Source of the DNA: Cellvibrio sp. OA-2007
GTDB lineage: Bacteria > Pseudomonadota > Gammaproteobacteria > Pseudomonadales > Cellvibrionaceae
NCBI RefSeq assembly: GCF_000953825.1
Contig: NZ_BBUL01000075.1
Span: 1 to 41,518 of the forward strand
Direction: 5' to 3'
Length of the DNA: 41,518 nucleotides
A program made the translations under genes and the position numbers. The notes beneath the pieces are model-generated. The model ran no database searches, was not told the origin of the DNA, and saw only the letters and a program-made list of their open reading frames with translations. Each line of letters opens with the position of its first letter. Within the stretch, counting starts at the first letter, position 1. Below are positions 11,810 to 29,751 of the stretch, piece after piece.

Positions 11810-13678
11810 ATGAATTCGTCCACCACTACAAACCTACTTAAACTCTCAGTGCTCAGTGCTGGCATTATGCTGGCTGCTAGCCAACATGCCGGAGCAGCTT
11901 GCAGCTATACCGTCACAAACAATTGGGGCAACGGATTTACCGGTGAGATCAAGGTCACCAACAATACCGGCCAAACAGTCAACAACTGGTCGGTGTCATG
12001 GCGAGAACCCGGTGCGAGTGTGACTAACGCGTGGAATGCAACACTGAGCGGAGCTAATCCTTACACCGCGAGCGCTTTAGGTTGGAACGCGACACTGGCT
12101 CCCGGGGCATCGGCCAGTTTTGGTTTTCAAGCGAATGGCACCGCCAGTACACCAACAGTAAACGGCAGTTTGTGTGGTGTGGCAACCTCATCTACCGCGA
12201 CCACATCCAGCACTCAATCAAGCACTCCGGCTGTCAGTTCGAGTTCGAGTATAAAAAGCAGTGTTGCCGTTAGCTCCAGTAAAAGTTCTTCATCCGCTGC
12301 ATCCTCCATCCCTGCAGAAAGCAGCTGGATTTTTGAAGAAAGTGCGGTGGGATTTTGTAGCAACTCCGGGGTGATCGATACCAAACATTCTGGCTATACC
12401 GGCACTGGTTTTATCGATACAGAAAATGTTATTGGTGCATCTATCCTGTGGAGCATCAACGCTGCGAATAACGCGAGTTATAACATGCAAATTCGTTTCG
12501 GCAATGGTGGCAGTGCCGCGCGACGCGCAAGCCTTGAAGTTAATGATATTTCAATTAAAACGCTGGATTTCCCCACCAATAGCAATTGGACGCAATGGCA
12601 AACCGTTAATGTCAGCGTGCCATTTAAGGCAGGCGTCAACAGTGTAAAACTTGTTGCAGAAACGGCTGATGGTTTAGCTAATATCGATAGCATTAGCGTG
12701 ACAGGCAATGGCGTAACACCTGCCGCTTGCCCTACTGCACCAACAACACCAGCCGCGCAGGATTGCAACAGCGTTACATCGCAACCTATTTTGCAAGTCG
12801 CAGCAGATGGTTCGGCCACTTACAAAACTATCGCGGCGGCACTGAATACGATTTCGAGTAGTAACACTACACCTACGCAAATTCGCATTAAACCGGGCAC
12901 CTATCGCGAAAAATTATTGATCACCAAACCCTTGGTAACGTTTTGTGGACAAACCGGAAAAGAAGCATCGACAATTTTGACCTACAACGATGGTGCCAGC
13001 ACCTTGAAGGCCGACGGCACTGCAATTGGCACATCCGGCAGCGCGAGTGTAACGATCAAAACAAATGATATTTCCATGGAAAATATCACCATCGAAAATT
13101 CATTCGGTATTGGTTCACAGGCGGTTGCGTTATTGGCGCAAGGTCAGCGTTTGCAGTTCCGCAATTGTCGTTTGCTTGGCAATCAGGACACTCTCTATAC
13201 CCACAGCGGCACTCAGTATTATCGCAACTGCCATATTCAAGGCACTGTTGATTTTATCTTCGGCGCAGCAACTGCAGTTTTTGAAAACAATACCATTCAC
13301 AGTGTCGGTGGCGGCTCTGCTCTAACTGCGCCTAGCACAGAACAAACCGTGCCCTACGGGTTGGTTTTTCTCGGCGGCAAAGTCACTGCCACACCCAATG
13401 TCGCCAAAGGTTCAGTGGCGCTAGGCCGCAACTGGAGACCTTATGGCGCAGCCGCCTATATCCGCACTGAACTCGGCCAACATATTTCTGCTGTGGGCTG
13501 GGTAAAAATGAGCGAGAACACCTTGGATACTGCGCGCTTTTCTGAGTATTTAACTACCGGTGCGGGCGCCAATACTTCTGCTCGCGCACCGCAATCCAAA
13601 CAATTAACTGCAACACAAGCAGCGACTTATACCATCGGCAATATTTTTGGCAGCTGGCAACCCAGCTATAGCAAATAA
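11810..13678 (+). CDS. pme8A: Secreted pectin methylesterase, CBM2-CBM35-CE8
   Basis: 622 residues: signal peptide about 1-29 (cut before ACSYTV); CBM2 31-122; Ser-rich linker 125-170; CBM35-like beta-sandwich 172-300 (SGYTGTGFIDTEN, VKLVAETADGLANID); CE8 pectin methylesterase 318-622. Catalytic residues are present: D460 in GNQDTLY, D481 in GTVDFIFG, and R540/W542 in LGRNW. It removes methyl esters from homogalacturonan so that the pectate lyase encoded 52 bases downstream can act. The CBM2 targets cellulose; CBM35 modules of this sort in Cellvibrio are known to bind uronic acid or lyase products. Ribosome binding is weak (GGGA). Symbol follows the naming used in Cellvibrio japonicus for the family-8 esterase; assignment by architecture, not by alignment. 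Confidence 0.92.
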   Translation: MNSSTTTNLLKLSVLSAGIMLAASQHAGAACSYTVTNNWGNGFTGEIKVTNNTGQTVNNWSVSWREPGASVTNAWNATLSGANPYTASALGWNATLAPGASASFGFQANGTASTPTVNGSLCGVATSSTATTSSTQSSTPAVSSSSSIKSSVAVSSSKSSSSAASSIPAESSWIFEESAVGFCSNSGVIDTKHSGYTGTGFIDTENVIGASILWSINAANNASYNMQIRFGNGGSAARRASLEVNDISIKTLDFPTNSNWTQWQTVNVSVPFKAGVNSVKLVAETADGLANIDSISVTGNGVTPAACPTAPTTPAAQDCNSVTSQPILQVAADGSATYKTIAAALNTISSSNTTPTQIRIKPGTYREKLLITKPLVTFCGQTGKEASTILTYNDGASTLKADGTAIGTSGSASVTIKTNDISMENITIENSFGIGSQAVALLAQGQRLQFRNCRLLGNQDTLYTHSGTQYYRNCHIQGTVDFIFGAATAVFENNTIHSVGGGSALTAPSTEQTVPYGLVFLGGKVTATPNVAKGSVALGRNWRPYGAAAYIRTELGQHISAVGWVKMSENTLDTARFSEYLTTGAGANTSARAPQSKQLTATQAATYTIGNIFGSWQPSYSK

Positions 13679-13730
13679 AAAAAGATTCATCATCTAGTAC
13701 TGAAATATTAATAACCACTTTGGAAATATT

Positions 13731-15752: not shown

Positions 15753-15773
15753 TACTTTTCTATGACTGAAAAT

Positions 15774-15803
15774 ATTGCGCCCGGTGTTACAACCGGGCGC
15801 AAT
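15774..15803. terminator. Bidirectional terminator between pectate lyase and DUF4380 genes
   Basis: ATTGCGCCCGG (15774-15784) pairs perfectly with CCGGGCGCAAT (15793-15803) with an 8-base loop. It lies between converging genes; the minus-strand read has the better T-rich tract (ATTTTC). Confidence 0.85.
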
Positions 15804-15821
15804 AACAAGAGAAAAATATCA

Positions 15822-16862
15822 TTAATCAACTGCATTAATAACACCTAGCCCACGCAAAAATGCGCGTTGTGCTGCTGGAGTTTGCTCGCCACTATAGGGT
15901 AGAAGTGTCCAAGTTTCTGTGGCAGACATAGATTCGTCGGGCTTGAGTGTTTTGTAGGGCGCATGTACCTCCAGCTCTAACAATCCCTCATCTGGATTGG
16001 CATTTAAAAATTCTTGATAAAGTTCAATTTGCCCCTGCTCTGGATGAATCGCATTTTTCGGCTGCAGAGGAAATTGGATCAGCAATAATTGTTGGTCGCG
16101 AAATGCCGCTAACCAACCCTGCTCCGGCTGAATAAAAATTTTGCCTTTTCGCCCTTGGTGTGTAACAGGCGAAAAATTTTCCAACGCAAATAACCCCTCA
16201 CTGAAATTATGTTCCAGCTGCCCATAGGTTGCGTCGGTAAAATGCTCAACGCGCACATCATTCATGCTCGCCACCGGCACATATACATTTGTTGTATGCG
16301 GCACACGGGTGTTAAACCAAATATCCCACGCAACACTGGAATCGCGAATGTTTTGTGCGGTGACATCCACACGAATTTGGTTAGGTTTTCCATCTACCAA
16401 TGCAAACGTTTTTTGCATAGCTACGCCTGACACAGGGCTATTGGGGCTTTGCATAATCACGCGCTGTGGTGTTTTTTCCTGCAGCGTATTTTTCGCGAGA
16501 ATTAAAAAAGGATCTGGCGGCCACACCGCTTTTGCGGCTGCACGCGCTGGATTTACCAGCTGATGCACCCACCATTGGCTCTGCGGACCTACCCAGGTTT
16601 CGTGACCAAAATAAGCAATATTATTCGCATTTGGCGTCACAGCAGGATTAGGTTCGCTGACAACTGCAGCGCCCACACGCAAAAAATTGGGCTGATCAAC
16701 CAGACCAACCGATACAACACGGCCGCCAATATCCGGTGTAACTTCAACAGCAACCGTACCGTTGCTCAATGGAATGCGCGTAATTTCTGCTTGCGCAGAC
16801 AGCGCAGTAAATAAAGACATATACAAAAAAATCCTTACTAAAAAGATAGGAGGAATAGGCAT
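15822..16862 (-). CDS. Secreted DUF4380 family protein (galactose mutarotase-like fold)
   Basis: 346 residues from the ATG at 16862, which has an AGAG 7 bases upstream; an earlier TTG is less likely. An N-terminal hydrophobic signal (IFLVRIFLYMSLFTALSAQA) directs export. The mature protein is beta-rich with IGGRVVSVGL and NFLRV near the start and WDIWFNTRVPHTTNVYVP in the middle, the pattern of DUF4380 proteins, whose fold resembles aldose epimerases and the supersandwich domains of polysaccharide lyases. No enzyme activity is established for the family. Converging on the pectate lyase gene, it may bind or act on released oligosaccharides; that is inference from position. Confidence 0.75.
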   Translation of the reverse strand: MPIPPIFLVRIFLYMSLFTALSAQAEITRIPLSNGTVAVEVTPDIGGRVVSVGLVDQPNFLRVGAAVVSEPNPAVTPNANNIAYFGHETWVGPQSQWWVHQLVNPARAAAKAVWPPDPFLILAKNTLQEKTPQRVIMQSPNSPVSGVAMQKTFALVDGKPNQIRVDVTAQNIRDSSVAWDIWFNTRVPHTTNVYVPVASMNDVRVEHFTDATYGQLEHNFSEGLFALENFSPVTHQGRKGKIFIQPEQGWLAAFRDQQLLLIQFPLQPKNAIHPEQGQIELYQEFLNANPDEGLLELEVHAPYKTLKPDESMSATETWTLLPYSGEQTPAAQRAFLRGLGVINAVD

Positions 16863-16974
16863 GATTGATCTCTCACTCAATATTTTTTGTAGGTTTTTTT
16901 GCAGTGTGCGACAAAATCTACGCTGGATATTGTCTGCACTGAGTCGCTTTATATCGGGATTAAATTAGCTGATA

Positions 16975-17220
16975 TTAGAGCAGTGGCTTGGAACTCAGTA
17001 TTTGCAGTAATTGTTGCAGGTGCACGGAGGACTCATAACCTAATGGAGTGAGATAACCACCATCAACTTGAGTTGTTAACTGTTTTTCAAACAGGCGGCG
17101 GGTTGCGGCGATAATTTCACTCGAAGCATCTGAGTGAACCTTTAATCCGGACTGACTGGTACTGGTATCAAACATACGCAGCACTTGCATTTCGGCAACT
17201 AACTCTTGGGATATTGGCAT
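16975..17220 (-). CDS. TIGR02647-like small conserved protein
   Basis: 81 residues from the second ATG (17220). The first ATG (17226) is only a base or so from GGAG, whereas the second has GGAG at 7 bases, so the second is preferred. The sequence ELVAEMQVLRMFDTSTSQSG followed by KVHSDASSEIIAATRRLFEK and GGYLTPLG matches the pattern of the TIGR02647 family of short proteobacterial proteins with a winged-helix-like look. No function is known; a DNA-binding role is possible. It has no signal peptide and no partner gene, and it shares a 15-base leader motif with the GH5 cellulase gene. Confidence 0.75.
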   Translation of the reverse strand: MPISQELVAEMQVLRMFDTSTSQSGLKVHSDASSEIIAATRRLFEKQLTTQVDGGYLTPLGYESSVHLQQLLQILSSKPLL

Positions 17221-17226
17221 AGTCAT

Positions 17227-17540
17227 TCTCCGTTATTATTGATTTTTAACAGCGCATCTTTGTAACACCAAAGCAGCAAATCCTTTGGGTCATTCAGTTA
17301 TAAATAGCATAGCTAGCGCGTATCACCAAAATAATTAGCAAAAAAAACCGACCAAACACAAAGTGAAAGGTCGGCAACTAGACAGTTTTAGGGGTAACAC
17401 CTGGAATCTGGCAAGTGGCCGGGAGCTGTAATAAAACCGCTCCACCCACCTGAATCCATTGAAAAAATCATCCTTGACCGAGGCATCTCTCCAAATGCCT
17501 GTCCATACTCACTCTCACTCGGTTGCTTACTTCACTACAG
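17227..17540. other. Intergenic region with leader motif and GH6 terminator
   Basis: About 315 bases. The right part is the 3' untranslated region of the GH6 gene, the middle holds its terminator, and the left part holds the leader of the small protein, with TTATTGATTTTTAAC at 17236-17250. No other gene or repeat is recognised. Confidence 0.5.
17341..17374 (-). terminator. Intrinsic terminator of the GH6 gene
   Basis: CCGACC (17348-17353) pairs with GGTCGG (17369-17374); on the minus strand the hairpin runs into TTTTTTT. It lies about 165 bases after the GH6 stop codon, leaving a long 3' untranslated tail. Confidence 0.75.
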
Positions 17541-19661
17541 TTATTGCAGTGGAGGGTAAGCATTGTTCACTAAAATTTGGAATGCGCCCTTAAACCAGCG
17601 ACCCGCCACCGGCGCATTAGCCAAAGCTCCAGTAGTGGTGCCAGCCGCATTGGTGTAGGTTGGATCGCAATTGCGGTCAAAACCTTTCGCTGGATCTTGA
17701 GGGTCAAATGACAACTCCTTAGACGCAGCGCCATCAGATTCACCTGGCGGCTTCACCCATACATACGCATCAATACCTGCAACTGGCGCAGCTTGTGGAC
17801 GCTCACCTATACCACCGGGCTGGTTACACCAATTTCCACGGTGTGCACGACGATCAATACGCGATTGATCTACGAATGTATCCAGCACGGTGCTAGTAGA
17901 TACAGCAGTCGGACGATTTGGACCACCCCAACCATTACGTGATGTGTCTACCAACATACCAATGGTTGATGGGAAACCAGATGCAATCATCGCGGTACGC
18001 CACGCTTGCACAAACGAAACTTCGCTGAAGTGAGGATTCCACTCGTAGAATTTCGCTTGGCGAGTTTGGGTACCACCACCAGTACCGAATGAACCGTTCG
18101 CCAATGAATCCAGGAATGGCTCGTACAGCGGCGTATAACCAGATGTGTTAGAAACGAAACCAGCGATTGAATTTACTCCACCTGTTGCACCTTTAATTGC
18201 ATTGCCAATCAAAGTAACGGCCTTGCCGAAGTTGTCAGTCCAACCCAGCCAACCTGAGTGACCTATATCAACATAGCTGTACACGTTAGTAATTGGATAC
18301 AACTTGCTCAGTGTGTAACGGGTATTAGCCACATAACCATGAGTTGGGTCGGTCGCTTCTTGACATGCAGGCGTGCTCAAGTTGGTAACCAGGTTTGGCA
18401 GCGAATCCGGCTCAATAATCGCGATAATCCGCAGTGATGCGTATTTAGGATCAGAGAAAATTCCGGCAATGACATCGACATACTCGGTGCGGTAGCGTGC
18501 ACTACCCTCAGCAGTTTGTTTTAACTCGCCATTCGATGCCAAGGCATGACAATCACGATTTGGCAGGTCATACACAACAACTTGAATCACATTCGCTTTT
18601 TGCGCCAATGCGGCATCCAAGTGATCGCGCAGGCCGAAGCTGCCATCGGTCGGTGCAATAGCGCCGATGCGATCCATCCACACCGCAGTGTTATAACCGG
18701 CAACTTTTGAACCATTGGTTTCTGCCTGAGCTTTAGCAGACCAGATTGGATCTACGTACCACTGGGCACCCACAAATGGATTATCCATACGCACGCCAGG
18801 CGTCACGCTCGATACTGATGAACTTGAGCGTGAACTAGGTGCAATAGATGAGCTCGTGCTCGGAACTGAACTTGACGTAGTTGCAACACTTGAACTACTG
18901 GGGACCACAGAGCTAGTTGTTGCCACAGAAGAACTACTTGGCGCGACTGATGAACGCGAGCTTGGCGTTACCGAACTGGTAGTCGCAACAGATGAGCTAC
19001 TCGGAACAACAGATGATCGAGAACTCGAACTAGGAGCAATGCTACTGGACGAACCACCTACGATATTGGTACAGGTTGAGCGCGCAATACAGCTCTTGTT
19101 GTTCTCCCAGCCCCAACCGCTTTGCGTGGTAACACACAGAGGGTAAAGGGTGCCATACCAGTTGCATTGTTGGCCGCCATTATTAGGCGCGCTGGAGCTG
19201 CTCACCACAGGAGTAGAGCTGCTAGAGCGAGAAGAGCTAACGGACGGGATGCTCGAAGGTGCTGACGAACTAGTTACTACCGTGCCGGAGCAAATACTGC
19301 CCGTAACGTTCGGAATTTCGGCCACACCGCCGCGCTTATCAACCTGAAATCCGAAACTGGTCGATTGCCCTGGCTGTAAAGTGCCATTCCAGCCCATATC
19401 TTTTGCACTGTAGGGATTGCTACCACTGAGCTGAGCATTCCATGAGCCTGTCAGGCGGTTGGTTGCATACTGCCAACCTACGGTCCAACCAGTTACTGCG
19501 CTATTACCGCTATTGGTAACCACAATTTCACCTGTAAGCCCGGTATTCCATTCATTGCTGATTTTGTAAACACAGCCGGCTGCTGCACCTTGACTAGCCG
19601 CAGCTAAGCCAAGGCTTAACAGCGCAGCCAAGCCATACGTTTTACTTATTGGAGTTGTCAT
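17541..19661 (-). CDS. cel6A: Secreted cellobiohydrolase-type cellulase, CBM2-CBM10-GH6
   Basis: 706 residues: signal peptide about 1-28; CBM2 30-124; Ser linker; CBM10 166-198 (CNWYGTLYPLC...GWGWENNKSC); a 90-residue linker with repeated [11 protein letters not shown] and VAPSS units; GH6 domain 290-706. GH6 landmarks are VVYDLPNRDCHA (D370), IIEPDSLPNLVTN (D419, the proton donor), DIGHSGWLGW, VDTSRNGWGG and WVKPPGESDG (D643). It attacks cellulose chains from the non-reducing end by inversion. AGGAG lies 7 bases before the ATG. Cellvibrio japonicus is described with a single GH6, hence the symbol. About 1 kb of noncoding DNA precedes the gene. Confidence 0.93.
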   Translation of the reverse strand: MTTPISKTYGLAALLSLGLAAASQGAAAGCVYKISNEWNTGLTGEIVVTNSGNSAVTGWTVGWQYATNRLTGSWNAQLSGSNPYSAKDMGWNGTLQPGQSTSFGFQVDKRGGVAEIPNVTGSICSGTVVTSSSAPSSIPSVSSSRSSSSTPVVSSSSAPNNGGQQCNWYGTLYPLCVTTQSGWGWENNKSCIARSTCTNIVGGSSSSIAPSSSSRSSVVPSSSSVATTSSVTPSSRSSVAPSSSSVATTSSVVPSSSSVATTSSSVPSTSSSIAPSSRSSSSVSSVTPGVRMDNPFVGAQWYVDPIWSAKAQAETNGSKVAGYNTAVWMDRIGAIAPTDGSFGLRDHLDAALAQKANVIQVVVYDLPNRDCHALASNGELKQTAEGSARYRTEYVDVIAGIFSDPKYASLRIIAIIEPDSLPNLVTNLSTPACQEATDPTHGYVANTRYTLSKLYPITNVYSYVDIGHSGWLGWTDNFGKAVTLIGNAIKGATGGVNSIAGFVSNTSGYTPLYEPFLDSLANGSFGTGGGTQTRQAKFYEWNPHFSEVSFVQAWRTAMIASGFPSTIGMLVDTSRNGWGGPNRPTAVSTSTVLDTFVDQSRIDRRAHRGNWCNQPGGIGERPQAAPVAGIDAYVWVKPPGESDGAASKELSFDPQDPAKGFDRNCDPTYTNAAGTTTGALANAPVAGRWFKGAFQILVNNAYPPLQ

Positions 19662-20663: not shown

Positions 20664-21272
20664 ATGTTAAAAACCCTCATTGTTTATGCTCACCTCCTGG
20701 CTGCTTGTGTAGCTATCGGTATTTTACTTATCCAAGACCTGGCGCTCGCCAAATCCAAAGGCAGCCCACTATCGGCTTCCGCCATCAAAGACCTCACCCG
20801 ATCGGCCGAAATCATGTTTATCGCCCTGATCGCCCTGTGGATTTCCGGCCTGTCGCTAGTGCTGATCGGCTATTTAGACAACCCGCAGCAGTATTTAATG
20901 AACCCCAAACTCTGGGCCAAATTCACCGTGGTCGCCGTGCTAACCCTGAACGGTATCGCGCTGCACTACTTCAGCTTCCCCCGCGTTACCTCGCGCAAAG
21001 GGCTGCTGGGGCTGCCGACCTTTGAACAAATTCTGGTGACCCTTACCGGCGCCCTCTCCTCTGTATCCTGGCTGTTTGCCTGTTATCTCGGCATCGCCCG
21101 CCCCTGGAATTACACCGTGGACTACAGCTTTGTCATGTTCATCTACTCAGGCCTGCTGATTGGTGCATTTATTGTGGCCGGTGAAGTCTTGCGCGCCATG
21201 CGCAGAGCAGAACCCGAGCCTCCTATGCTCACCGAACAAATTCGGATGAACACCTCCCGTAAGTTTGATTGA
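20664..21272 (+). CDS. Small integral membrane protein, DUF2214-like
   Basis: 202 residues with about five membrane helices (4-24, 49-71, 84-104, 125-146, 154-177) and a charged C-terminus. Histidines sit in helix 1 (VYAHLLAAC, H10) and in helix 3 (IALHYF, H101), positions where b-type haem is bound in several small membrane cytochromes; this is suggestive, not proof. The first-helix pattern K-x-x-x-x-Y-A-H-L resembles DUF2214/CopD-like proteins. The gene is richer in GC than the surrounding noncoding DNA. It stands upstream of the cellulase-YceI gene but is separated from it by a strong terminator, so it is probably a separate transcript. A role in the redox chain is inference from position. 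Confidence 0.65.
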   Translation: MLKTLIVYAHLLAACVAIGILLIQDLALAKSKGSPLSASAIKDLTRSAEIMFIALIALWISGLSLVLIGYLDNPQQYLMNPKLWAKFTVVAVLTLNGIALHYFSFPRVTSRKGLLGLPTFEQILVTLTGALSSVSWLFACYLGIARPWNYTVDYSFVMFIYSGLLIGAFIVAGEVLRAMRRAEPEPPMLTEQIRMNTSRKFD

Positions 21273-21277
21273 TCTGT

Positions 21278-21305
21278 AAACCCGATAGTTGCTATCGGGT
21301 TTTGG
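21278..21305 (+). terminator. Intrinsic terminator after the small membrane protein gene
   Basis: AAACCCGATAG (21278-21288) pairs perfectly with CTATCGGGTTT (21292-21302) around a TTG loop and is followed by a further T. Confidence 0.85.
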
Positions 21306-21349
21306 TCGTGATGACGGCGCTGTAACAATCATTGCGACCCGCTGCACCT

Positions 21350-21448: not shown

Positions 21449-24370
21449 ATGAGTAGCTTTAAAGCCTCTGCGATCACCCCTCGCCTGGATGGAGCCCTAA
21501 CCCGCTCCCTCTATGCGGTAGGGTTCTCCCTGGCTGTATCCACTCTCTCCACTGCCGCACATGCTGGTTGCCAGTATGTGATTAACAATCAGTGGAATAA
21601 TGGATTCGACGCCAAGATAAGAATAACCAACGATGGGACTAGTACGATCAATGGCTGGAACATCAACTGGCAGTACAGCGGCGACAACCGCGTTACCAGC
21701 AGTTATAACGCCACCCTCACCGGCACTAACCCTTACTCTGCTACCAATCTCAGCTGGAATGGCACTATTGCGCCCAACCAAACGGTTGAATTTGGTTTTC
21801 AAGGCAGCAAAGGTGCGGCAGCGGCACAAATACCTACCATTACCGGCGCAGTATGTGGTGGCACCACAACCTCTTCGGTAGCACCTGCCAGCTCATCTAC
21901 ACCTTCATCAATTCCCGGTGTATCCAGCTCTCGCTCTTCTGTTTCTTCCAACGGCACCACCCAAGGTGTAGCGCCACTGGTAGTGCAAGGCAACAAAGTG
22001 ACTGCTAATGGCCAGCCAGCCAATCTAGCGGGCATGAGCCTGTTCTGGAGCAATACCGGTTGGGGCGGTGAGAAATACTACACCGCACAGACCGTGTCCT
22101 GGTTGAAGTCTGATTGGAAAGCCAATCTGGTGCGTGTTGCTATGGGCGTGGAAGATGCAGGCGGCTATTTGACCGACGCATCCAACAAAGCCCGTGCAAC
22201 AACCGTGATTGATGCGGCGATTGCCAACAACATGTATGTGATTATCGACTGGCATACCCATCACGCTGAAGACAATAAAGCTCAGGCGATTACCTTCTTC
22301 AAAGAGATGGCAACCAAGTACGGCAACTACAACAACGTGATTTATGAGGTGTACAACGAGCCACTGAATATTTCATGGAGTGGTGTACTTAAGCCTTATG
22401 CGACTGACGTAATCAAAGAAATCCGTGCAATTGACCCGGACAACCTGATTATTGTGGGCACGCCTAACTGGTCGCAAGACGTTGATGTAGCAGCCAATGA
22501 CCCTATTACTGCTTACAGCAACATCGCGTACACCCTGCACTTCTACGCAGGCACCCACAAACAATCCCTGCGCGACAAAGCACAAACCGCATTGAACCGT
22601 GGTATTGCCTTGTTCGTCACCGAGTGGGGTTCAGTGAATGCCGATGGCGGTGGCGCTGTCAACACAGCGGAAACCAACACCTGGTTGAGCTTCCTCAAAA
22701 CCAATGGTATTAGCCATGCTAACTGGGCACTGAACGACAAGGCAGAAGGCTCTTCTGCGCTGGTTCCAAATGCCAGTGCTAACGGTGGCTGGACGGCAGC
22801 GCAATTGACGGCTTCTGGCACCTTGGTACGCAACAACATGATTAGCCAGAACAGTGGAACAACCTCCAGTGTTGCCCCCTCCAGTGTTGCCCCTAGCAGC
22901 TCACGCTCTAGCACCCCAAGTTCAGTGGCACCAAGTTCAGTGGCGCCGAGCTCTGTAGCATCTTCTGTGAACAACGGCGCAGGCGTTCTGTTCAGCGAAA
23001 CCTTTGAAAGCGGTGCGGTCAATACTCAACCAAGCGGTTGGGAAAACTTCATTGGCTGGGTTCCAAACAACAGCAACACCACCTCTGGCGCACAATATGC
23101 GTTGATTGACAGCGCCAAGTCCTACAGTGGTAGCAAGTCTATTCACTTCAAAGGCGGCGCGGCACCTGCGCAAATCATCCGCGCTCTGCCGGCTGGCACT
23201 CAACGTCTGTATACCCGCGCCTACGTCAATATGAGCGTTGCGATGGGCAATGTGGCCGGTGATAACCACGAGCATATTCTGGGCCTGAAAAAGACCAAAG
23301 ATGCCAACGATGAAATCCGCGTGGGTCAAATCAAAGGGGTTTTAGGTACCAACCATATCCCAAGCGATAACATCGCGCCAAAAATGAGCCAGTGGTACTC
23401 AGGCCCACAAATGGCGGCCAATACCTGGTACTGCGTTGAGGTGGATTATCTGGCCGATCAAGCCTATGACACCTTGAAAATGCGTGTGAACGGCAATGAA
23501 GTTCACTCCATTACCTCGGCTAACGATTGGAACAACGGCGCCTTGGGTGCTGATTGGATGAGCGATAAGTTTAACTATGTGATGTTTGGTTTCCACAGCT
23601 TCAGCGGCCGTTCTGCTGACGTTTGGATGGATGACATTGTGGTATCTACCCAACCTATCGGTTGTGGTGCGACACCACCACCTGCAAGCTCAAGTGCACC
23701 AAGCTCGGTTGCTCCTAGCAGCTCAAGCGCACCAAGCTCTGTAGCGCCATCGTCATCGGCACCTTCTTCTGTGGCTCCAAGCTCTTCAGCGCCAAGTTCT
23801 GTAGCACCAAGCTCAAGCAGTCGCTCAAGCTCTTCTGTTGCTACAACTGCAGCATGGACTCTGGATACCACCGCGTCTTACCTGAACTTTGTGACCACTA
23901 AAAACACCCATGTTGTCGAAGTGCATAACTTCACCAGCATCAGCGGTGATATCAGTGCAGCAGGTGTGGCTACCCTGAACATCGATTTGAGCACGGTGAA
24001 TACCGGTATCGCCCTGCGCGATCAACGTATGCGCGACCTGTTGTTTGAAGTGACCAGCTTCCCCTCTGCGACTGTGACTGTGGCGGTACCTGCCACGTTG
24101 ATCAGCAGCTTGGCCGTTGGCCAATCGGCTACCACGGATATCTCTGCCAACCTGAATCTGCATGGTGTGACCGGTGCGATTACCACCAAAGTCTCCGTAC
24201 AGAAACTGTCAGCTAACCGCGTCCTGGTACAAAGCTTATCGCCCATCCTGATCAAGGCTGGCGACTATGCACTCACCGATGGTGTAGAAGCCCTGCGTGC
24301 AGCGGTTGGCATCGCATCGATCAGTGTGGCCGTGCCTGTGGACTTCGCGCTCGTCTTTGACGCCCGTTAA
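21449..24370 (+). CDS. Secreted multidomain cellulase, CBM2-GH5-Cip1-like-YceI
   Basis: 973 residues from the ATG at 21449, which has GAGGA 7 bases upstream; a longer frame from 21332 lacks one and reads through the promoter repeat. Signal peptide 1-39; CBM2 40-137; Ser linker; GH5_2-like endoglucanase about 175-465 with E304 (EVYNEP, acid/base) and E392 (VTEWGS, nucleophile); Ser/Pro linker; beta jelly-roll 512-739 ([39 protein letters not shown]) resembling the Cip1/lyase-like domain; a linker of four [10 protein letters not shown]-type repeats; YceI lipocalin-like domain 800-973. YceI domains bind polyprenyl quinones, so this enzyme appears to carry a redox or isoprenoid cofactor together with a cellulase. 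It is 27 bases upstream of the YceI-cytochrome gene and surely cotranscribed. GH5, CBM2 and YceI are firm; the Cip1 label is tentative. Confidence 0.9.
23684..23839 (+). repeat. Tandem-repeat Ser/Pro linker coding sequence
   Basis: In-frame repeats encoding about four units of [10 protein letters not shown] lie between the Cip1-like and YceI domains of the cellulase. Codon variation between units shows that the repeat is old or under selection as a flexible spacer. A related but shorter run is at 22860-22975. Confidence 0.8.
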
Positions 24371-24397
24371 TTGGATGAAGCTTAGAGAGAACCTATC

Positions 24398-27300
24398 ATG
24401 AAAAAATTATTGAAACTGTCGATGCTCTCCTGCGGGGTAACCCTGGGCATCATGGCTTCCAGCGGCGCTATCGCCCAGGGAGCCTGTAGTGTGAATTATG
24501 CTGCCGTCAACAGCTGGGGCAATGGTGCGCAAATTACCACCACCATCACCAATACCAGTGCCGCTAAAACCAGCTGGGAACTTTGCTGGACTTACGCGGG
24601 CAATGACACCATTGCCAACCTCTGGGATGGTGTACACACCCAGACCGGCAAAAATGTCTGTGTGAAAAACGCCGGCTACAACCCTAACCTGCCAGCCAAT
24701 GGTTCGGTGTCATTCGGGTTTATCGTCAACAACCCAGGTGCCGTACCCACCGCCTTCACCCTCAACGGTGCAGCCTGTGGTGGTGCCGCCAGCAGCGTAT
24801 CCAGCGTGGTACCGAGCAGCGTGTCATCCAGCAGCAAAAGCAGCACACCCAGCAGTGTGTCTTCCAGCAGCGTAGCGCCCACCGTGGCCGCACGCTGGTT
24901 GCTCGATGCCAGCAAATCCACCTTTAACTTCGTGACCGTGAAAAAGAGTGTTGCCGGTGCTGAAACCCCCGAAAGCATGACCTTCAGTCAGCTCGAAGGG
25001 ACTGTCGCCACCAATGGTCAAGCCACACTGACCATTCCGCTGGCCAGTATCAGCACCAACAACGTAGTGCGCGATCCACGTATGCAAAGCATGCTGTTTG
25101 AATCCAACTACTTGCCTAGCCTGCACTTCACCACCCAGCTCGACCTGGCGGCGATTGATGCCATGGCTGCAGGCAGCACCAGTGTGCAACCTGTCACCGG
25201 TAATCTGGTTCTGCACGGTATAGTGAAAGCATTGACGTTCGACGTGCTGGTAGTAAAACACGCCAACAACAGCGTCAGCTTCTCGCCGCGCAAACCGATT
25301 GTGATCAACGCTATTGATTTCGATCTGAATGCCGGTGTTGAAGCCCTGCGTGCTATTGCAGGCCTCTCAACCATTGGTGAGAAAGTACCGGTTTACTTCA
25401 AGATGTTCCTGAACCGTGACAACCCCACCAACGTGCCTGCCATCAGCCTCGCCACTGCACCTGCTGCGGCTACTGGCTTGACCGGTACGGTGAGCAATGC
25501 CACTGGCGCTGCCAACCTCAACTGGGCGGACGTTAGCAATAACGAAAGCGGCTTCCTGGTTCGTCGTAAAGGTGCCGATGGTCGCTGGATGACAGCAAGC
25601 AACAATGCAGCTAACAGCGTTAGCTTCATTGACACCCTGACTGCCGCTGGCAGCTATGACTATAAAGTCATCAGCTACGCCGACAGCATTCCTGCTGCTG
25701 CGACTACTCCGTTGTCACTGGTCTATGCCGGCACAACTGGCTCTTCGGTGTCCTCTGTTAACTCTTCAACCAGCAGCTCGGTAGTTACTTCTATTAGCTC
25801 CACTAGCTCTCGTAGCTCCAGCAGTACCGGCGCATTAGTAGGCAATGCTGCTAATGGGAAAACCTTATGGAGCACTCAAAGCTGTATAGGCTGCCATGGT
25901 GTAGATGGCGCTAAAAATGCTAACGGTACTGCAGCTGCGATTGCGCTTAACCCGAACCGCACTTACTATCGCCACAGAAGTGATACGCAGGATCGCTCTC
26001 TGCGAGACTTTATTGCGCTGTGGATGCCACAAGGTGGTGAGGGTACATGTACTGGCCAATGCGCGGCAGATTTGGAAGCCTATATCTGGACATTCCGCAA
26101 ACCCAGTGACGGCATTCCAGATGTACCGGTGAGTAAGTTCAGCTGTCCATCCAATGCACAAAGCTATGGTCAAAGAACCTTGCGTTTGCTGACCAAATTG
26201 GAATATCAACGCTCAGTCAGAGACTTGGTAGCTTATCAAGCGGATGTAACTGCAAGTTTGCCCGATGACTTTGTGTCAGGTGCATTTGTTAACAATAACA
26301 CCCTTGCGATTGATAAGACACGCTACACCAGTTACTTGGCCAATGCTGAACGTATTGCCACTGACGTAGCAACACGCTGGAACGCTGTCCTTAGCTGTAC
26401 TCCATCAACCGCTTGTGCAAGTACATTAGTAAACACCTTGGGTCCACGTATTTTCCGTCGCCCTTTGACTACTGATGAACAAAGTGCTTACCTCGCAGTT
26501 GCTAATGGCACTACCGGTGGCCGCACTGTTGCTGATGGTATGCAAGTTGCCCTGACCGCAATGTTGTCATCTCCACAGTTCTTGTATCGTTCCGAAATCG
26601 GAACCCTGTCAAGCAGCGGCGTGTACAAACTTGACGGTTACGAAATGGCAACTTACATGGCTTATACCTTTACCGGTACTACGCCAAGTACTGCTCTGAT
26701 GACAGCAGCAGCTAACGGCACGTTAAATACAGTTACCGGTATTCGCGCCCAAGCAGCTACTTTACTTAACTCAGCCAATACCAAGTTACTCCTGACAGAT
26801 TTGGTAAACCGCTGGTTAGCTACCGACAAGATCGAAACCCTGACCAAACCGGCTATTAGTGGTTTCGCCACTCTTGGTGCCGACATGAAAAATGAGCTGG
26901 GCAAAAACTTTGCCTACGCGATGTTGGAAACCAATGGTTCGTTTGCATCCGTGTACAACCCATCCTATACCCACGTCAACGCTCGCTTGGCAACACACTA
27001 TGGTTTGGCGTTGAGTGGCACTCTGGATGCAGACGGTTTTGCTCGTGTAACAACCAGCGACCGCGGTGGTATTCTGACTTCAGGTGCATTCTTGTCGCGT
27101 TACGCTAGCACTACTGATTCGAACATGATCACTCGTGCCGTTGCGATTCGCCGTAAGTTGATGTGTCAGGATATTCCTGAGCCACCATCTGGTGTTAGCT
27201 TGGACCGCGAAGCCTTGTTTGCGCAAGACCGCGCGTTCTACGAAGCGCCAACCACTACCCAACACATGATTTTCGACCGCATTACTGCAGGAACCACCTG

Positions 27301-27787
27301 TTCTAACTGCCATGCCGAAATCATCAACCCATTGGGTGGCGGATTGGAAAACTTCGATACAGCTGGCCGTGTTCGCTCAACTGATCTGAAAGGTAATGCA
27401 ATTGTGTCTAGCGGTACTTTCTACTCGCCCTATCCACAACTCCAGTTCCTGAATGATCCGGATCGCGTGCTCTACTCACCTGAGATTAAATTCAACGGTG
27501 CTAAAGATCTCGCACGTACCATTGTTGAACATCCGGAATTATCGAGCCTGGCCCAGACCTGTCTGGCAACCCAGTTCGTAAGCTACAGTTCAGGTATCAA
27601 CTCAATCTTCCTGATCGATTCTGATAGAGATGTTGGCTACAAGCGCATCAGCAAAGACGAAGAAAACGCTTACCGTTGTGATGTGACTGATTTGACCAAT
27701 GTACTATCAACTAGAGGCCCACGTGCAATGCTTGAAGAAATCCCAGCATTGGAATCTGTGATGTACCGGAAGGAGTGGGTGCGCTAA
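24398..27787 (+). CDS. Secreted CBM2-YceI-Fn3-cytochrome c protein with DUF1587/1592/1588/1585 region
   Basis: 1129 residues. Signal peptide 1-27; atypical CBM2 30-128 with extra cysteines; Ser linker; YceI domain 164-340 (RWLLDASKSTFNFVT, VVRDPRMQSMLFES, GNLVLHGI); Fn3-like domain 350-443 (NLNWADVSNNESGFLVRRKG); Ser linker; class I cytochrome c 482-568 with CIGCH (496-500) and a candidate axial Met in LWMPQGG (M543); then a planctomycete-type PSD region: DUF1587-like LRLLTKLEYQRSVRDLV, DUF1592-like SPQFLYRSE, DUF1588-like RGGILTSGAFL...TCSNCHAEIINPLG (second haem site 968-972) and a DUF1585-like end. It would carry a quinone and two haems on the cellulose surface. It resembles in kind the Cellvibrio japonicus Cbp2D/Cbp2E redox proteins, but identity to either is not claimed. 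AGAGAG precedes the ATG by 8 bases. Confidence 0.9.
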   Translation: MKKLLKLSMLSCGVTLGIMASSGAIAQGACSVNYAAVNSWGNGAQITTTITNTSAAKTSWELCWTYAGNDTIANLWDGVHTQTGKNVCVKNAGYNPNLPANGSVSFGFIVNNPGAVPTAFTLNGAACGGAASSVSSVVPSSVSSSSKSSTPSSVSSSSVAPTVAARWLLDASKSTFNFVTVKKSVAGAETPESMTFSQLEGTVATNGQATLTIPLASISTNNVVRDPRMQSMLFESNYLPSLHFTTQLDLAAIDAMAAGSTSVQPVTGNLVLHGIVKALTFDVLVVKHANNSVSFSPRKPIVINAIDFDLNAGVEALRAIAGLSTIGEKVPVYFKMFLNRDNPTNVPAISLATAPAAATGLTGTVSNATGAANLNWADVSNNESGFLVRRKGADGRWMTASNNAANSVSFIDTLTAAGSYDYKVISYADSIPAAATTPLSLVYAGTTGSSVSSVNSSTSSSVVTSISSTSSRSSSSTGALVGNAANGKTLWSTQSCIGCHGVDGAKNANGTAAAIALNPNRTYYRHRSDTQDRSLRDFIALWMPQGGEGTCTGQCAADLEAYIWTFRKPSDGIPDVPVSKFSCPSNAQSYGQRTLRLLTKLEYQRSVRDLVAYQADVTASLPDDFVSGAFVNNNTLAIDKTRYTSYLANAERIATDVATRWNAVLSCTPSTACASTLVNTLGPRIFRRPLTTDEQSAYLAVANGTTGGRTVADGMQVALTAMLSSPQFLYRSEIGTLSSSGVYKLDGYEMATYMAYTFTGTTPSTALMTAAANGTLNTVTGIRAQAATLLNSANTKLLLTDLVNRWLATDKIETLTKPAISGFATLGADMKNELGKNFAYAMLETNGSFASVYNPSYTHVNARLATHYGLALSGTLDADGFARVTTSDRGGILTSGAFLSRYASTTDSNMITRAVAIRRKLMCQDIPEPPSGVSLDREALFAQDRAFYEAPTTTQHMIFDRITAGTTCSNCHAEIINPLGGGLENFDTAGRVRSTDLKGNAIVSSGTFYSPYPQLQFLNDPDRVLYSPEIKFNGAKDLARTIVEHPELSSLAQTCLATQFVSYSSGINSIFLIDSDRDVGYKRISKDEENAYRCDVTDLTNVLSTRGPRAMLEEIPALESVMYRKEWVR

Positions 27788-27836
27788 TGCGCGCCCCTTT
27801 TCCCCTCGCCTTGTTAACGAATTGGAGTAAATAAAA

Positions 27837-29039
27837 ATGAGATATAGAGACTGCTTCGATAAAGAGCGCAGAGACTTTCTGCGTATCGTACAGCGCGCCG
27901 GTATTTCTGCCGGATTGCTGCAAGCTTCCAGCCTGATTGGCGGAATCATGTTGGCGCGTGTTGCAGAGGCACAAAGTGGCGTACCAACCAAAAGCTGCTT
28001 GGTGTTTTCTGGTGGCGGCTGCCAACCTAACCTGTGGTACCCAACAGGCGGCACCTTACCTGCCCAGTCGGCACCACTGCAAACCCATTACAGCAAAATC
28101 GCCATTATGAAGAGCGCCAAGTTAACTGGCGCTGGCCATGGCATCATGTTCCATCGTTTTGATAACGGTAGCTTTTCCAAAGACAGTTTTGATGTAAACA
28201 TGGGGCGTACCATCGGTGCAAACTATCCGGTTAAATACCTAAACGTAGGTACCACCGAAGAATCACAACTGAGCCGTGAAGGCACTGCAAGCAGACCAAC
28301 CATCACCAGTCCTCAGACCGCACTGGACATATTGTTTAGCGGTGGCACCACCACCACTAGCGGTGTCGCGCCAAGAAAATCGATTGTTGATTTGCACTAC
28401 CCTGCAGTTAACAGTTTGAAAACCAAACTGGGGCAGCATGAGAAAGAAAAATTGGATAGCCATTTCACCGCGATCCAAGAAATTGAAGCGGCAATTGGTT
28501 CTGGTAGTAGCGGTGGCGGTAGTAGCGGCTCATGCCCGAAACCAGCCAGTACTGCAGTCACTGGTTTCGATGCACTGGCAAAAATGCAAGTAGATATCGC
28601 TGTGTTAGCACTGAGCTGTAACTTAACTGCATCGGTATCTGTGGCATTTGGTTCAGATGCGCACAACCATATCTTTGATAAGTTAGGTGGTCGCTCATCG
28701 CACCAATCGCACCACTTTAACCAAGCGCAATACACTGAAGACATCGCTTACATGCAAGGTTTGACTAAATACCTGATGGACAAGCTCAATACAGCTGGCC
28801 TGTTTAGTTCAACTGTTGTGACACAAGTGTCTGATATGGGCCTTGCAGATGCTCACGGCAATGACGATGTACCTATGTTGGTTGCAGGTGCAGGCATCAC
28901 CGGCGGACGTGTGCTAGATATCGGCGGCAAAACCCAAGCGGATATCTTCCATACCCTTGCACTGAAATTAAAAGCAGATCAAAGCCCTAACAGTACTGCT
29001 TACCGTAACTGGGGCGGCTCAGTTATCGCAGGTCTGTAA
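27837..29039 (+). CDS. Tat-exported DUF1552 family protein
   Basis: 400 residues. The N-terminus has a twin-arginine motif, ERRDFLRIVQRAG (RR at 11-12), followed by a hydrophobic stretch ending AEAQ, so export as a folded, possibly cofactor-bearing protein is expected. The remainder shows the DUF1552 pattern: KSCLVFSGGGCQPNLWYP, HGIMFHRFDNG, KSIVDLH and an SHQSHHFNQ histidine cluster. DUF1552 genes are regularly found directly after DUF1592/1588 cytochromes, and here the gap is 49 bases with GGAG 9 bases before the ATG. The biochemical function is unknown; histidine-rich clusters suggest a metal. A glycine/serine stretch (GSGSSGGGSSGS) interrupts the middle. It probably works with the upstream cytochrome in the periplasm or outside the cell. 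Confidence 0.85.
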   Translation: MRYRDCFDKERRDFLRIVQRAGISAGLLQASSLIGGIMLARVAEAQSGVPTKSCLVFSGGGCQPNLWYPTGGTLPAQSAPLQTHYSKIAIMKSAKLTGAGHGIMFHRFDNGSFSKDSFDVNMGRTIGANYPVKYLNVGTTEESQLSREGTASRPTITSPQTALDILFSGGTTTTSGVAPRKSIVDLHYPAVNSLKTKLGQHEKEKLDSHFTAIQEIEAAIGSGSSGGGSSGSCPKPASTAVTGFDALAKMQVDIAVLALSCNLTASVSVAFGSDAHNHIFDKLGGRSSHQSHHFNQAQYTEDIAYMQGLTKYLMDKLNTAGLFSSTVVTQVSDMGLADAHGNDDVPMLVAGAGITGGRVLDIGGKTQADIFHTLALKLKADQSPNSTAYRNWGGSVIAGL

Positions 29040-29047
29040 GCCCTTAA

Positions 29048-29088
29048 GCTTTGCGGTGCCAGATTGCTATTGTCTGGCGCCGCAAAGC
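29048..29088 (+). terminator. Long hairpin after the DUF1552 gene
   Basis: A 16-base-pair stem (left arm 29048-29063, right arm 29073-29088, one G-T wobble) with a 9-base loop is followed by GATTTCATTT. It lies 9 bases after the DUF1552 stop codon. It may end most transcripts or protect the 3' end while letting some transcription reach the b561 gene. Confidence 0.75.
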
Positions 29089-29196
29089 GATTTCATTTAT
29101 ATTCCCCCGCTGTAATTTTCGTTTTAATAAAACCGCATTTAGCTGCATCAAAAAAATTCCCCGAATAATCCTATAAAAATAACGCGAGAAAAAATA

Positions 29197-29751
29197 ATGA
29201 TCAGAGACTCCCACCATAATTTTGGTATCGTCAGTATTTTCTTCCATTGGTTAAGTGCCGGCTTAACTTTGTTTTTATTTGGCCTTGGCGCTTACCTGAC
29301 TAGCTACGGCTACTACTCACCAGACTATTTGGAAATCGCACACCTGCATTACGCGATGGGCGTCATTTTATTTGGATTGGTCTGCATCAGGCTGCTGTGG
29401 CGCCTTACCAGCAAAACCCCGACAACACTGGTGGATTCTCTCCCCGTAAAAATGGGAATCGCACTGAGCAAACTGGTACTCTATGTTTGTTTGTTTACAA
29501 TTTTGATTAGCGGTTATTTCATCTGCACCGCTGAGGGGCAATCAATTAATGTATTTGGCCTATTCCAAATGCCGTCAATCGTACTTTTAGAAAATGAGCA
29601 GCTCAATATCGCAGGCTTAACTCATAAATATGCCGCCTGGGGGTTAATGGCACTGGTAATAATTCACGCTGGCGCTGCGCTTGTGCATCACTTTTTTAAA
29701 CGCGATCGCACTCTGGTGCGCATGCTAAAACCAAATAAGCATTCAAGCTAA
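29197..29751 (+). CDS. Cytochrome b561 family membrane protein
   Basis: 184 residues with four membrane helices and the family's histidine ligands: FFHWLS (H17), HLHYAMG (H49/H51), LTHKYAAWG (H143) and VIIHAGAALVHHFF (H157). Bacterial b561 proteins hold two b haems in the inner membrane and pass electrons between quinol and a periplasmic partner. In E. coli a b561 gene (yceJ) sits directly before yceI, so the appearance of a b561 gene at the end of a cluster with two YceI-domain proteins is a matched pair. The stretch between the DUF1552 stop and this ATG is 157 bases and includes a long hairpin, so it may be only partly cotranscribed. The N-terminus is cytoplasmic, without a cleaved signal. 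Confidence 0.88.
   Translation: MIRDSHHNFGIVSIFFHWLSAGLTLFLFGLGAYLTSYGYYSPDYLEIAHLHYAMGVILFGLVCIRLLWRLTSKTPTTLVDSLPVKMGIALSKLVLYVCLFTILISGYFICTAEGQSINVFGLFQMPSIVLLENEQLNIAGLTHKYAAWGLMALVIIHAGAALVHHFFKRDRTLVRMLKPNKHSS

What the first reader, a model, noticed from the sequence alone, without database searches (positions are those of the whole stretch)
21449..29751. Candidate cellulose-tethered redox chain: YceI-cellulase, YceI-cytochrome, DUF1552 and b561 in one cluster
Seen: four same-strand genes with small gaps encode a cellulase ending in a YceI domain, a CBM2-YceI-cytochrome c-PSD protein, a Tat-exported DUF1552 protein and a b561 cytochrome. Known: YceI domains bind polyprenyl quinones, b561 proteins exchange electrons with quinol and are paired with yceI in E. 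coli, and CBM2/YceI proteins of Cellvibrio have been implicated in redox support of cellulose attack. Inferred: b561 draws electrons from membrane quinol, YceI and haems relay them to the cellulose surface, where they could drive LPMOs or a still unknown oxidative step by the DUF1592/DUF1552 pair. Having both a cellulase and a cytochrome with matched YceI domains in one operon is unusual.
Basis: partly seen in the sequence, partly recalled or inferred. Interest (0 to 1): 0.9.

Follow-up and report, generated by a model that had tools for sequence, protein, structure and literature searches.

The report
Cellulase-fused cellulose redox gene cassette
A soil bacterium carries an uncommon version of a gene set, already known to matter for growth on cellulose, in which one haem/quinone-linked helper protein has been fused to a cellulase; comparing relatives points to an unstudied protein (DUF1552) as the constant partner of the set's cytochrome.

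Summary
The genes are real and mostly read correctly. They are a variant of the Cbp2E-Cbp2D gene pair of Cellvibrio japonicus (CBM2-X158/YceI; CBM2-X158-FN3-X183-X132). Here Cbp2E carries a GH5 endoglucanase plus an X122 (Cip1-like) domain between its CBM2 and YceI parts.

Three corrections. (1) The b561 gene lies behind a strong terminator-like hairpin and directly follows only 4 of 35 cassettes, so it is not a core part. (2) The constant third gene is DUF1552: 32 of 35 cassettes, the 3 misses cut by sequence ends; family-wide, 30 of 30 and 29 of 30 sampled loci show the pair. (3) The cassette is two exchangeable blocks: [E + N-half of D] and [X183-X132 + DUF1552]. Distances of X132 and DUF1552 correlate at 0.99, against 0.45 between the two halves of the D gene. 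One genome holds tandem cassettes 99.7% identical up to the FN3-X183 linker, then with different C-halves and DUF1552s.

Elsewhere the X183-X132 + DUF1552 unit carries a sugar-dehydrogenase-like (GSDH) domain instead of X158. I read it as a cellulose-anchored redox unit: interchangeable electron input, fixed X132-DUF1552 output. Electron flow and the DUF1552 reaction are inferred. The parts are known; I found no description of the GH5-fused form or the DUF1552 partnership in the library searched.

The parts
20664..21272 (+). DUF2214 predicted membrane protein (family name), probably its own transcription unit; found near 20 of 35 cassettes
   Evidence: Pfam 5.2e-8, 33.4 bits against a gathering score of 34.1; paralogs 80% and 64% identical beside the two other cassettes of this genome; His10 and His101 kept in 23 of 23 non-identical homologues from the fetched loci; neighbourhood count
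21278..21302 (+). terminator-like hairpin followed by TTTT between DUF2214 and the cassette
   Evidence: fold of 21273-21312: -14.5 kcal/mol, z -3.52, 0 of 200 shuffles as good
21449..24370 (+). E gene: signal peptide-CBM2-GH5-X122-X158 (Cbp2E with an endoglucanase and an X122 domain inside)
   Evidence: start set by alignment with the paralog L010:7668-8735
21566..21856 (+). CBM2 of E
   Evidence: Pfam 1.6e-30, residues 40-136
21998..22741 (+). GH5 catalytic domain; NEP and TEWG motifs present
   Evidence: Pfam 5.6e-67, residues 184-431; PDB 4m1r 1.5e-150; motifs located; that they hold the catalytic Glu pair is recalled
22976..23668 (+). X122 (Cip1-like jelly-roll) domain of unknown activity
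   Evidence: PDB 8q2a 1.2e-85, 8q28 6.4e-81, 3zyp (Cip1) 1.6e-8
23855..24358 (+). X158 / YceI domain of E
   Evidence: Pfam 1e-14; PDB 2x32 9.3e-51
24398..27787 (+). D gene: CBM2-X158-FN3-X183-X132, a Cbp2D homologue
24896..25402 (+). X158 / YceI domain of D
   Evidence: Pfam 4.2e-16; genome search places it at C23:24896-25402
25832..26107 (+). X183 c-type cytochrome domain, CXXCH at residue 496
   Evidence: PDB 7b21 (C. japonicus Cbp2D X183) 4.7e-38; coordinates and motif
26135..27784 (+). X132 = PSD3-PSD5-PSD4-PSCyt3 region, second CXXCH at residue 968
   Evidence: Pfam 5.2e-13 to 1.4e-25; no fold match in PDB beyond the X183 part
27837..29039 (+). DUF1552 protein with Tat-like start; constant partner of X132
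   Evidence: Pfam 3.4e-30; adjacency; low-confidence model resembles sulfatase/alkaline-phosphatase folds
29048..29088 (+). strong terminator-like hairpin closing the E-D-DUF1552 unit
29197..29751 (+). cytochrome b561 gene, downstream of the hairpin; optional neighbour
   Evidence: Pfam 1.4e-24; NCBIfam cytochrome b561 below cut-off, 52.2 of 170 bits; directly follows 4 of 35 cassettes and L172

Best explanation
A cellulase-bearing variant of the Cbp2E-Cbp2D cassette plus its constant DUF1552 partner. Genes E, D and DUF1552 are made as one unit and exported (inferred from gaps, hairpins and signal-like starts). The CBM2 modules place E and D on cellulose (family knowledge); E's GH5 cuts accessible chains (inferred from close homology). 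The X158 domains of E and D hold a quinone or other isoprenoid and work as a pair (inferred: a relative was crystallised with ubiquinone-8; E and the D N-half share one history). Electrons pass from X158 to the X183 haem and on to the X132 haem (inferred). X132 and the DUF1552 protein together are the conserved output that carries out the terminal reaction at the cellulose surface (inferred). In relatives a GSDH sugar-dehydrogenase-like domain stands in place of X158, so X158 and GSDH look like alternative electron inputs to the same X183-X132-DUF1552 unit. Shown here: domains, gene order, constancy of DUF1552, two-block exchange, hairpin before b561. Not shown: electron flow, cofactor content, the reaction of X132-DUF1552.
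For: Domain identity. Paralogous cassettes in the same genome: CBM2-X158 + D + DUF1552 (L010) and lipoprotein-like YceI + YceI-cytochrome + DUF1501 (L009). DUF1552-type gene directly downstream of 32 of 35 X132-type genes (one of the 32 is the DUF1501 protein of L009); the other 3 are cut by the end of the sequence, and one of those continues into a DUF1552 on the next stretch. Family sample: 30 of 30 DUF1552-centred loci have X132 beside DUF1552, 29 of 30 D-centred loci have DUF1552, the 30th ends at a contig end (the two sets share at least 5 places, and the first 15 D-centred loci are the window and Cellvibrio loci mostly already counted). In 24 complete cassettes distance correlations are X132-DUF1552 0.99, E X158-D X158 0.77, D X158-X132 0.45, E X158-DUF1552 0.33; partial correlation X132-DUF1552 0.98, 0 of 2000 permutations. 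Supported tree splits in conflict: X132 against DUF1552 0 of 12, N-block against X132 3 of 12, N-block against DUF1552 4 of 12, E against D N-half 0 of 10. G014 tandem cassettes: 99.7% identity over 5195 bp up to about D residue 475, then a different C-half and DUF1552; a third cassette has the same E without GH5. GSDH input in 8 of 8 tested CBM2 proteins of this type outside Cellvibrio. Literature: cbp2D and cbp2E needed for growth on insoluble cellulose (PMC12542752, abstract and sections 13, 19, 22); CjX183 is a redox cytochrome at +193 mV (PMC8981238, section 11).
Against: No experiment on this cassette. Co-inheritance of X132 and DUF1552 is partly explained by their being adjacent on the DNA; linkage alone could give the 0.99 if breakpoints never fall in the short gap between them. 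The E-D N-half agreement can likewise be plain shared descent. The DUF1552 fold assignment rests on a weak model (pLDDT 58.6, TM about 0.4), and a hydrolase-like fold does not suggest an oxidoreductase. No structure explains X132. The X158 ubiquinone may come from E. coli expression (my caution). DUF1552 starts Tat-like, E and D look Sec-type by eye, and whether DUF1552 reaches the cell surface is unknown.
Confidence: 0.5

Rival explanations
1. LPMO reductant: quinol on X158 reduces X183/X132, which reduce LPMO copper at the cellulose surface; DUF1552 is accessory.
For: CjX183 reduces two bacterial LPMOs and supports cellulose oxidation (PMC8981238, section 11). Its +193 mV lies below LPMO copper (above +220 mV, same source) and above ubiquinone (about +100 mV, recalled), so the flow is downhill. 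The window's genome has LPMO_10 genes, 3 matches of which one is short. An X122 domain is also fused to an LPMO (L043). 17 of 21 genus genomes have an LPMO_10 match.
Against: Rates called rather slow (PMC8981238) and apparently too slow to prove a function (PMC10154616, passage); TtX183 domains did not drive TtAA10 (PMC10916295); cbp2D/E mutants are reported worse than lpmo10B mutants (PMC12542752). G019 has five X132 matches and no LPMO_10 match; G006 and G011 have LPMOs but no X158-type D match. No LPMO gene was seen inside the cassettes, DUF1552 is constant.
Confidence: 0.2
2. DUF1552 is a hydrolase of the sulfatase/alkaline-phosphatase superfamily that removes a substituent; the cytochrome protein mainly carries it or senses something.
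For: Foldseek: the 50 matches shown are mostly sulfatases and related enzymes (YejM, LtaS types), best 9.3e-6, 59 matches with E up to 0.001; H289, H293 and H340 invariant in 16 of 16.
Against: Weak model. The first strand, which bears the metal-binding Asp pair in sulfatases (recalled), has no Asp at residues 53-62 in 16 of 16. It does not explain why the partner is always a haem-motif protein.
Confidence: 0.15
3. Reverse flow: the cellulose-bound unit oxidises sugar ends or carbohydrate and passes electrons to a respiratory acceptor.
For: The same X183-X132-DUF1552 unit is fused to GSDH-type domains in relatives, and some Verrucomicrobia PSCyt genes carry CBM-like modules (PMC5615132, passages).
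Against: X183 at +193 mV cannot readily reduce a ubiquinone on X158 (about +100 mV, recalled). No activity or cofactor binding was found for the Teredinibacter dehydrogenase-like domain pair (PMC10916295, passages).
Confidence: 0.15
4. Tether, not redox: X158 binds isoprenoid lipid and holds the cellulase and cytochrome at the outer membrane or on vesicles.
For: YceI/X158 domains are polyisoprenoid binders (PMC8981238, passages); the L009 paralog has a lipoprotein-like E without CBM2 (read by eye).
Against: The D genes pair X158 with haem domains; in relatives X158 is swapped for a dehydrogenase-like domain, not a lipid anchor.
Confidence: 0.1

Closest known systems
Cbp2E-Cbp2D of Cellvibrio japonicus (B3PLJ6/B3PLJ5; PMC12542752, PMC8981238)
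   Same: Gene order E-D, CBM2-X158 in E, CBM2-X158-FN3-X183-X132 in D, two haem motifs; L052 (G002, whose 4,576,573-bp size I recall as that of C. japonicus and whose D is 1122 aa as in PMC12542752) has DUF2214-E-D-DUF1552
   Different: E here is 973 aa with GH5 and X122 inserted; a b561 gene follows. DUF1552 does not occur in the main texts of PMC12542752, PMC10916295 and PMC10154616, and a library-wide search for the word finds 2 other papers only
PSCyt3/PSD genes of Verrucomicrobia and Planctomycetes (PMC5615132)
   Same: PSD/PSCyt3 genes usually next to one unknown gene family, some with carbohydrate-binding modules; function unknown
   Different: Here fused to CBM2 and X158 and organised with a Cbp2E or cellulase gene. 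That the unknown neighbour family in that paper is DUF1552 is my inference: the word is counted 3 times for that record but not in its main text, and its supplement was not read
TERTU_3803 and TERTU_2913 of Teredinibacter turnerae (PMC10916295)
   Same: X122, X183 and X132 domains, signal peptides; CBMs in TERTU_3803
   Different: GSDH-like pf08450-X173 domain pair in TERTU_3803 instead of X158, X122 on the cytochrome protein rather than on a cellulase
GH5 endoglucanases such as PDB 4m1r
   Same: Catalytic domain (1.5e-150)
   Different: The solved construct holds no X122 or X158
E. coli yceJ-yceI (b561-YceI) pair
   Same: YceI-type and b561-type proteins near each other (pair recalled)
   Different: b561 here lies behind a strong hairpin and is an optional neighbour; a YceI + b561 locus exists elsewhere in this genome (contig C9)

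Membership tests
Cbp2E-Cbp2D cassette | D with CBM2-X158-FN3-X183-X132 and two CXXCH | tested here: met
Cbp2E-Cbp2D cassette | E with CBM2 and C-terminal X158 directly upstream of D | tested here: met
   27-nt gap; E X158 matches 2x32 at 9.3e-51
Cbp2E-Cbp2D cassette | E consists of CBM2 and X158 only | tested here: not met
   GH5 and X122 lie between them; hence a variant, not a plain member
Cbp2E-Cbp2D cassette | needed for growth on insoluble cellulose | not testable with these tools
   shown for the C. japonicus genes in PMC12542752 only
PSCyt3/X132-DUF1552 pair | PSD/PSCyt3 gene with DUF1552 adjacent | tested here: met
   49-nt gap; conserved
GH5 cellulase | GH5 domain and NEP/TEWG motifs | tested here: met
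   activity not tested
yceI-b561 unit | b561 in one transcription unit with the YceI gene | tested here: inconclusive
   157-bp gap with a strong hairpin and rarity in other cassettes speak against it; no RNA data
LPMO electron donor | reduces an LPMO | not testable with these tools
   published for isolated CjX183 (PMC8981238)
LPMO electron donor | co-occurs with LPMO genes | tested here: inconclusive
   17 of 21 genus genomes have LPMO_10 and 18 of 21 have an X132-type match; G019 has X132 without LPMO, incomplete genome
sulfatase/alkaline-phosphatase superfamily (DUF1552) | fold | tested here: inconclusive
   Foldseek 9.3e-6 but TM about 0.4 on a pLDDT 58.6 model

The most novel reading that the evidence does not exclude
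X132 plus DUF1552 is an unrecognised two-protein, haem-fed enzyme that attacks polysaccharide directly: the cutting activity that Kakacek et al. 2025 postulated for Cbp2D/E, with DUF1552 (three invariant His on a sulfatase-like fold) as the missing catalytic subunit. Different X132-DUF1552 pairs would serve different substrates, powered through interchangeable inputs (X158 quinol or GSDH) and aimed by interchangeable CBMs. In the window the same complex also carries an endoglucanase, coupling oxidative and hydrolytic attack.
Probability: 0.2. Interest if true: 0.92.

Novelty: new variant of a known kind. Interest (0 to 1): 0.62.

Why it matters
Cbp2D and Cbp2E are among six genes reported as required for growth on insoluble cellulose in C. 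japonicus (PMC12542752), yet their chemistry is open and single domains tested alone have given slow or no activity. The comparison names a constant partner, DUF1552, whose name does not occur in the main texts of the three papers checked for it, and suggests that the natural unit to express is X183-X132 together with its own DUF1552. That gives a direct test. The GH5-fused Cbp2E, and a genome with nearly identical E genes with and without GH5, offer natural test pairs. It also ties an obscure cytochrome family, described from Planctomycetes and Verrucomicrobia, to a genetically tractable cellulose degrader.

Tried and rejected
b561 as a core component: rejected on gene context.

Recent sideways spread of the GH5 module: its protein identity to other E genes (92-95%) exceeds that of the flanking CBM2 and X158 (69-71% to L047/L048), which looked like recent transfer. 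Four-fold degenerate sites are about as diverged in GH5 (41-54% identical) as in the other domains (37-68%), so strong selection explains it; rejected. Only in G014 is the with/without-GH5 difference recent.

Chance as the source of the C-half correlation: rejected by permutation and by the tree comparison, but physical linkage remains as a partial explanation.

DUF1552 against PDB by sequence: best E 0.16, a sulfatase, not significant. X132 against PDB by sequence and fold: nothing beyond the cytochrome X183 part. The genome-contig scan with the D alignment chose YceI peptide patterns, so 52 of its 69 loci (L082-L133) match only around the YceI part of the query; I did not use them for cassette counts.

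A conserved terminator after every DUF1552: not borne out. Of 32 downstream stretches folded, 7 had z of -1.0 or weaker (100 single-base shuffles each).

Rows dropped before counts: one search used the window, L009, L010, L038-L064, L065, L076 and L077. It left out L066-L075 and L078-L081 (the same places as loci already in), the short loci L001-L008 and L013-L037, L011, L012, and L082-L133. One search used 24 of the 35 rows, dropping those without a visible E or DUF1552, L009 (different C-half) and the broken D at L048. Not every X132 match was fetched; L164-L173, fetched later, all show X132 beside DUF1552 (L170 and L171 repeat places counted before).
Full report
What is there. The window lies in a 4.6-Mb genome (G000, contig C23) whose nearest relatives are Cellvibrio (record titles of the best matching loci; genus search). 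The 'YceI-cytochrome' is CBM2-X158-FN3-X183-X132, with X183 matching the solved Cbp2D X183 domain of C. japonicus (7b21, 4.7e-38). X132 corresponds to the Pfam PSD3-PSD5-PSD4-PSCyt3 region; that equation is mine, helped by a figure legend in PMC10916295 that marks a DUF (printed DUF1687) at the N-end of X132.

Probably not one four-gene operon. A 17-pair hairpin closes the DUF1552 gene (29048-29088, z -7.65; found) before b561. Many other cassettes also fold a stable structure right after DUF1552, but not all: z was -1.0 or weaker in 7 of the 32 listed. The DUF2214 gene upstream is also followed by a hairpin with TTTT (z -3.52). The likely unit is E-D-DUF1552.

Paralogs show what the core is. 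The same genome has two more cassettes. L010: CBM2-X158 (plain Cbp2E), D, DUF1552, DUF2214. L009: DUF2214, a lipoprotein-like YceI, a YceI-cytochrome without CBM2, and a DUF1501 protein. The window's E aligns with the plain Cbp2E from signal peptide through CBM2 and again over X158, with GH5-X122 lying between.

Genus-wide census. A search with the E protein found matches in 20 of 21 genus genomes. Local profile annotation of fetched loci gave 35 X132-type genes (one of them, in L009, with a different C-half). A DUF1552-type gene is directly downstream in 32 (in L009 it is the DUF1501 protein); the 3 misses end at the edge of the sequence. An E gene is upstream in 28 of 35 (my reading of the table; the entry there for L048:1048 is a piece of its own broken D gene); 5 of the 7 misses lie at or near the start of their stretch, L040 and L044 have room and lack it. 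DUF2214 is near 20 of 35. A b561 gene directly follows 4 of 35 (window, G014, G016, and L065 from Cellvibrio sp. 79), with one more at L172. E variants among the 28: CBM2-X122-X158 in 3; CBM2-GH5-X122-X158 in 4 (window, two in G014, one in G019); CBM2-GH5-(a very distant X122 relative, about 21% identity)-X158 in 2 (G009, G016); the rest mostly CBM2-X158. So GH5 occurs in 6 of 28 E genes, in 5 genomes.

Two blocks. In 24 complete cassettes I compared pairwise distances. X132 and DUF1552, two separate genes, correlate at 0.99; X183 with each at 0.90; E X158 with D X158 at 0.77; but the N- and C-halves of the same D gene only at 0.45. Trees agree: no supported conflict between X132 and DUF1552, or between E and the D N-half, but 3 to 4 of 12 supported N-block splits conflict with X132 or DUF1552. 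G014 shows the exchange directly: four tandem cassettes; the first two are 99.7% identical over 5195 bp from DUF2214 to about D residue 475, in the linker before X183, then carry different C-halves and DUF1552 proteins; the third has the same E (99.3-99.8% by domain; 91.5-94.8% over longer stretches) without GH5. Linkage on the DNA could produce part of this pattern.

Family-wide. In a sample of 120 family genomes, DUF1552 is found in 69 and X158/X183/X132 relatives in 72. Of the loci fetched (30 from each search, the best of a genome), 30 of 30 DUF1552-centred ones carry an X132-type gene beside DUF1552, and 29 of 30 D-centred ones carry DUF1552. The sets are not independent: at least 5 places are in both, and 15 of the D-centred loci are the window and other Cellvibrio genomes. 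Of the 15 D-centred loci outside Cellvibrio (L189-L203), 4 have X158 in D and 8 have CBM2 with a GSDH domain instead (8 of 8 tested, on the part of each gene inside the locus); L189 has CBM6; L190 and L191 were not tested by Pfam. In the C. japonicus-sized genome a 2323-aa protein joins four CBM26, GSDH, cytochrome and PSD domains next to a DUF1552. L044 joins CBM2, GH5, an esterase-like domain, CBM9, cytochrome and PSD domains next to a DUF1552. So the unit X183-X132 + DUF1552 is constant while binding and input modules vary.

What DUF1552 may be. An AlphaFold model from 16 sequences is weak (pLDDT 58.6, pTM 0.61) but Foldseek finds sulfatase and related folds (best 9.3e-6, TM about 0.4). H289, H293 and H340 are invariant in 16 of 16 sequences and H101 in 15 of 16, while residues 53-62, around the first strand, hold no Asp in any of the 16. 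A metal site is plausible; the reaction is unknown. The X183-X132 model (pLDDT 74.1) matches only known X183 structures at good E-values.

Mechanism. Best reading: CBM2 anchors, GH5 hydrolyses, X158 quinol feeds X183 then X132, and X132-DUF1552 uses the electrons. Direction is inferred from the published +193 mV of CjX183 (PMC8981238), a recalled ubiquinone potential near +100 mV, and from GSDH standing in place of X158. The LPMO-reductant idea in print is possible but does not explain the constant DUF1552, and G019 has cassettes without a detected LPMO_10.

What is known. Seen: PMC12542752 (abstract, sections 13, 19, 22, passages), PMC8981238 (section 11, passages), PMC10916295 (passages), PMC10154616 (passages), PMC5615132 (passages), PMC2754498 (one passage), PMC10714805 (term search only, nothing found). 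Library searches: Cbp2D/YceI with Cellvibrio, 11 papers, all listed; DUF1552, 2 papers; DUF1592 and related with three terms, 1; planctomycete cytochrome terms, 82 at two terms or more, 15 listed; X158/X183/X132, 60 at two or more, 12 listed; YceI with cellulase terms, 131 at four or more, 15 listed; C. japonicus redox terms, 49 at three or more, 8 listed; PSCyt3/DUF1588/HXXSHH, 2. None of the titles and abstract starts listed describes a GH5-X122-X158 protein or a Cbp2D-DUF1552 link; capped lists were not read further. The library lacks most subscription papers; Gardner 2014 and Vincent 2010 were not read.

Noticed in passing
window 9218-19661: Polysaccharide-degradation neighbourhood: GH5-CBM2-CBM10 (9218-11053 -), pectinesterase and pectate lyase each with CBM2 and CBM6 (11810-15752 +), GH6-CBM2-CBM10 (17541-19661 -).
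   Followed up: partly
window 38998-41283 (-): 761-aa protein with a GSDH (glucose/sorbosone dehydrogenase) domain, about 9 kb from the b561 gene; the same domain type that stands in place of X158 in relatives.
   Followed up: no
L009:6801-13313: Third cassette of this genome with a lipoprotein-like YceI and a DUF1501 partner instead of DUF1552, suggesting a parallel X158-cytochrome system.
   Followed up: partly
L044:2623-10480: 2171-aa CBM2-GH5-esterase-CBM9-cytochrome-PSD protein followed by DUF1552: cellulase joined directly to the cytochrome unit.
   Followed up: partly
L164:1359-9738: 2323-aa protein with four CBM26, GSDH, cytochrome and PSD domains next to DUF1552 in the C. japonicus-sized genome; possibly the gene called cbp26A in PMC12542752 (inference).
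   Followed up: partly
L043:7431-10259: LPMO_10-GbpA_2-CBM10-X122-CBM2 protein: an X122 domain on an LPMO.
   Followed up: no
L045/L046 (G014): Four tandem cassettes in about 36 kb with three E architectures and four different X132-DUF1552 pairs; reads like a cassette-diversification locus.
   Followed up: yes
L001, L011 (G000 contig C9): YceI gene with a b561 gene beside it on the same strand, the usual yceI-b561 arrangement.
   Followed up: partly
L041:2525-5113 and L042:1-2520: E-like genes with CBM2 and X158 that also carry a cytochrome domain of their own; L041 has CBM6 too.
   Followed up: no
L048:37-2967: D gene split into three reading frames at a contig edge; frameshift or assembly error, not examined further.
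   Followed up: no
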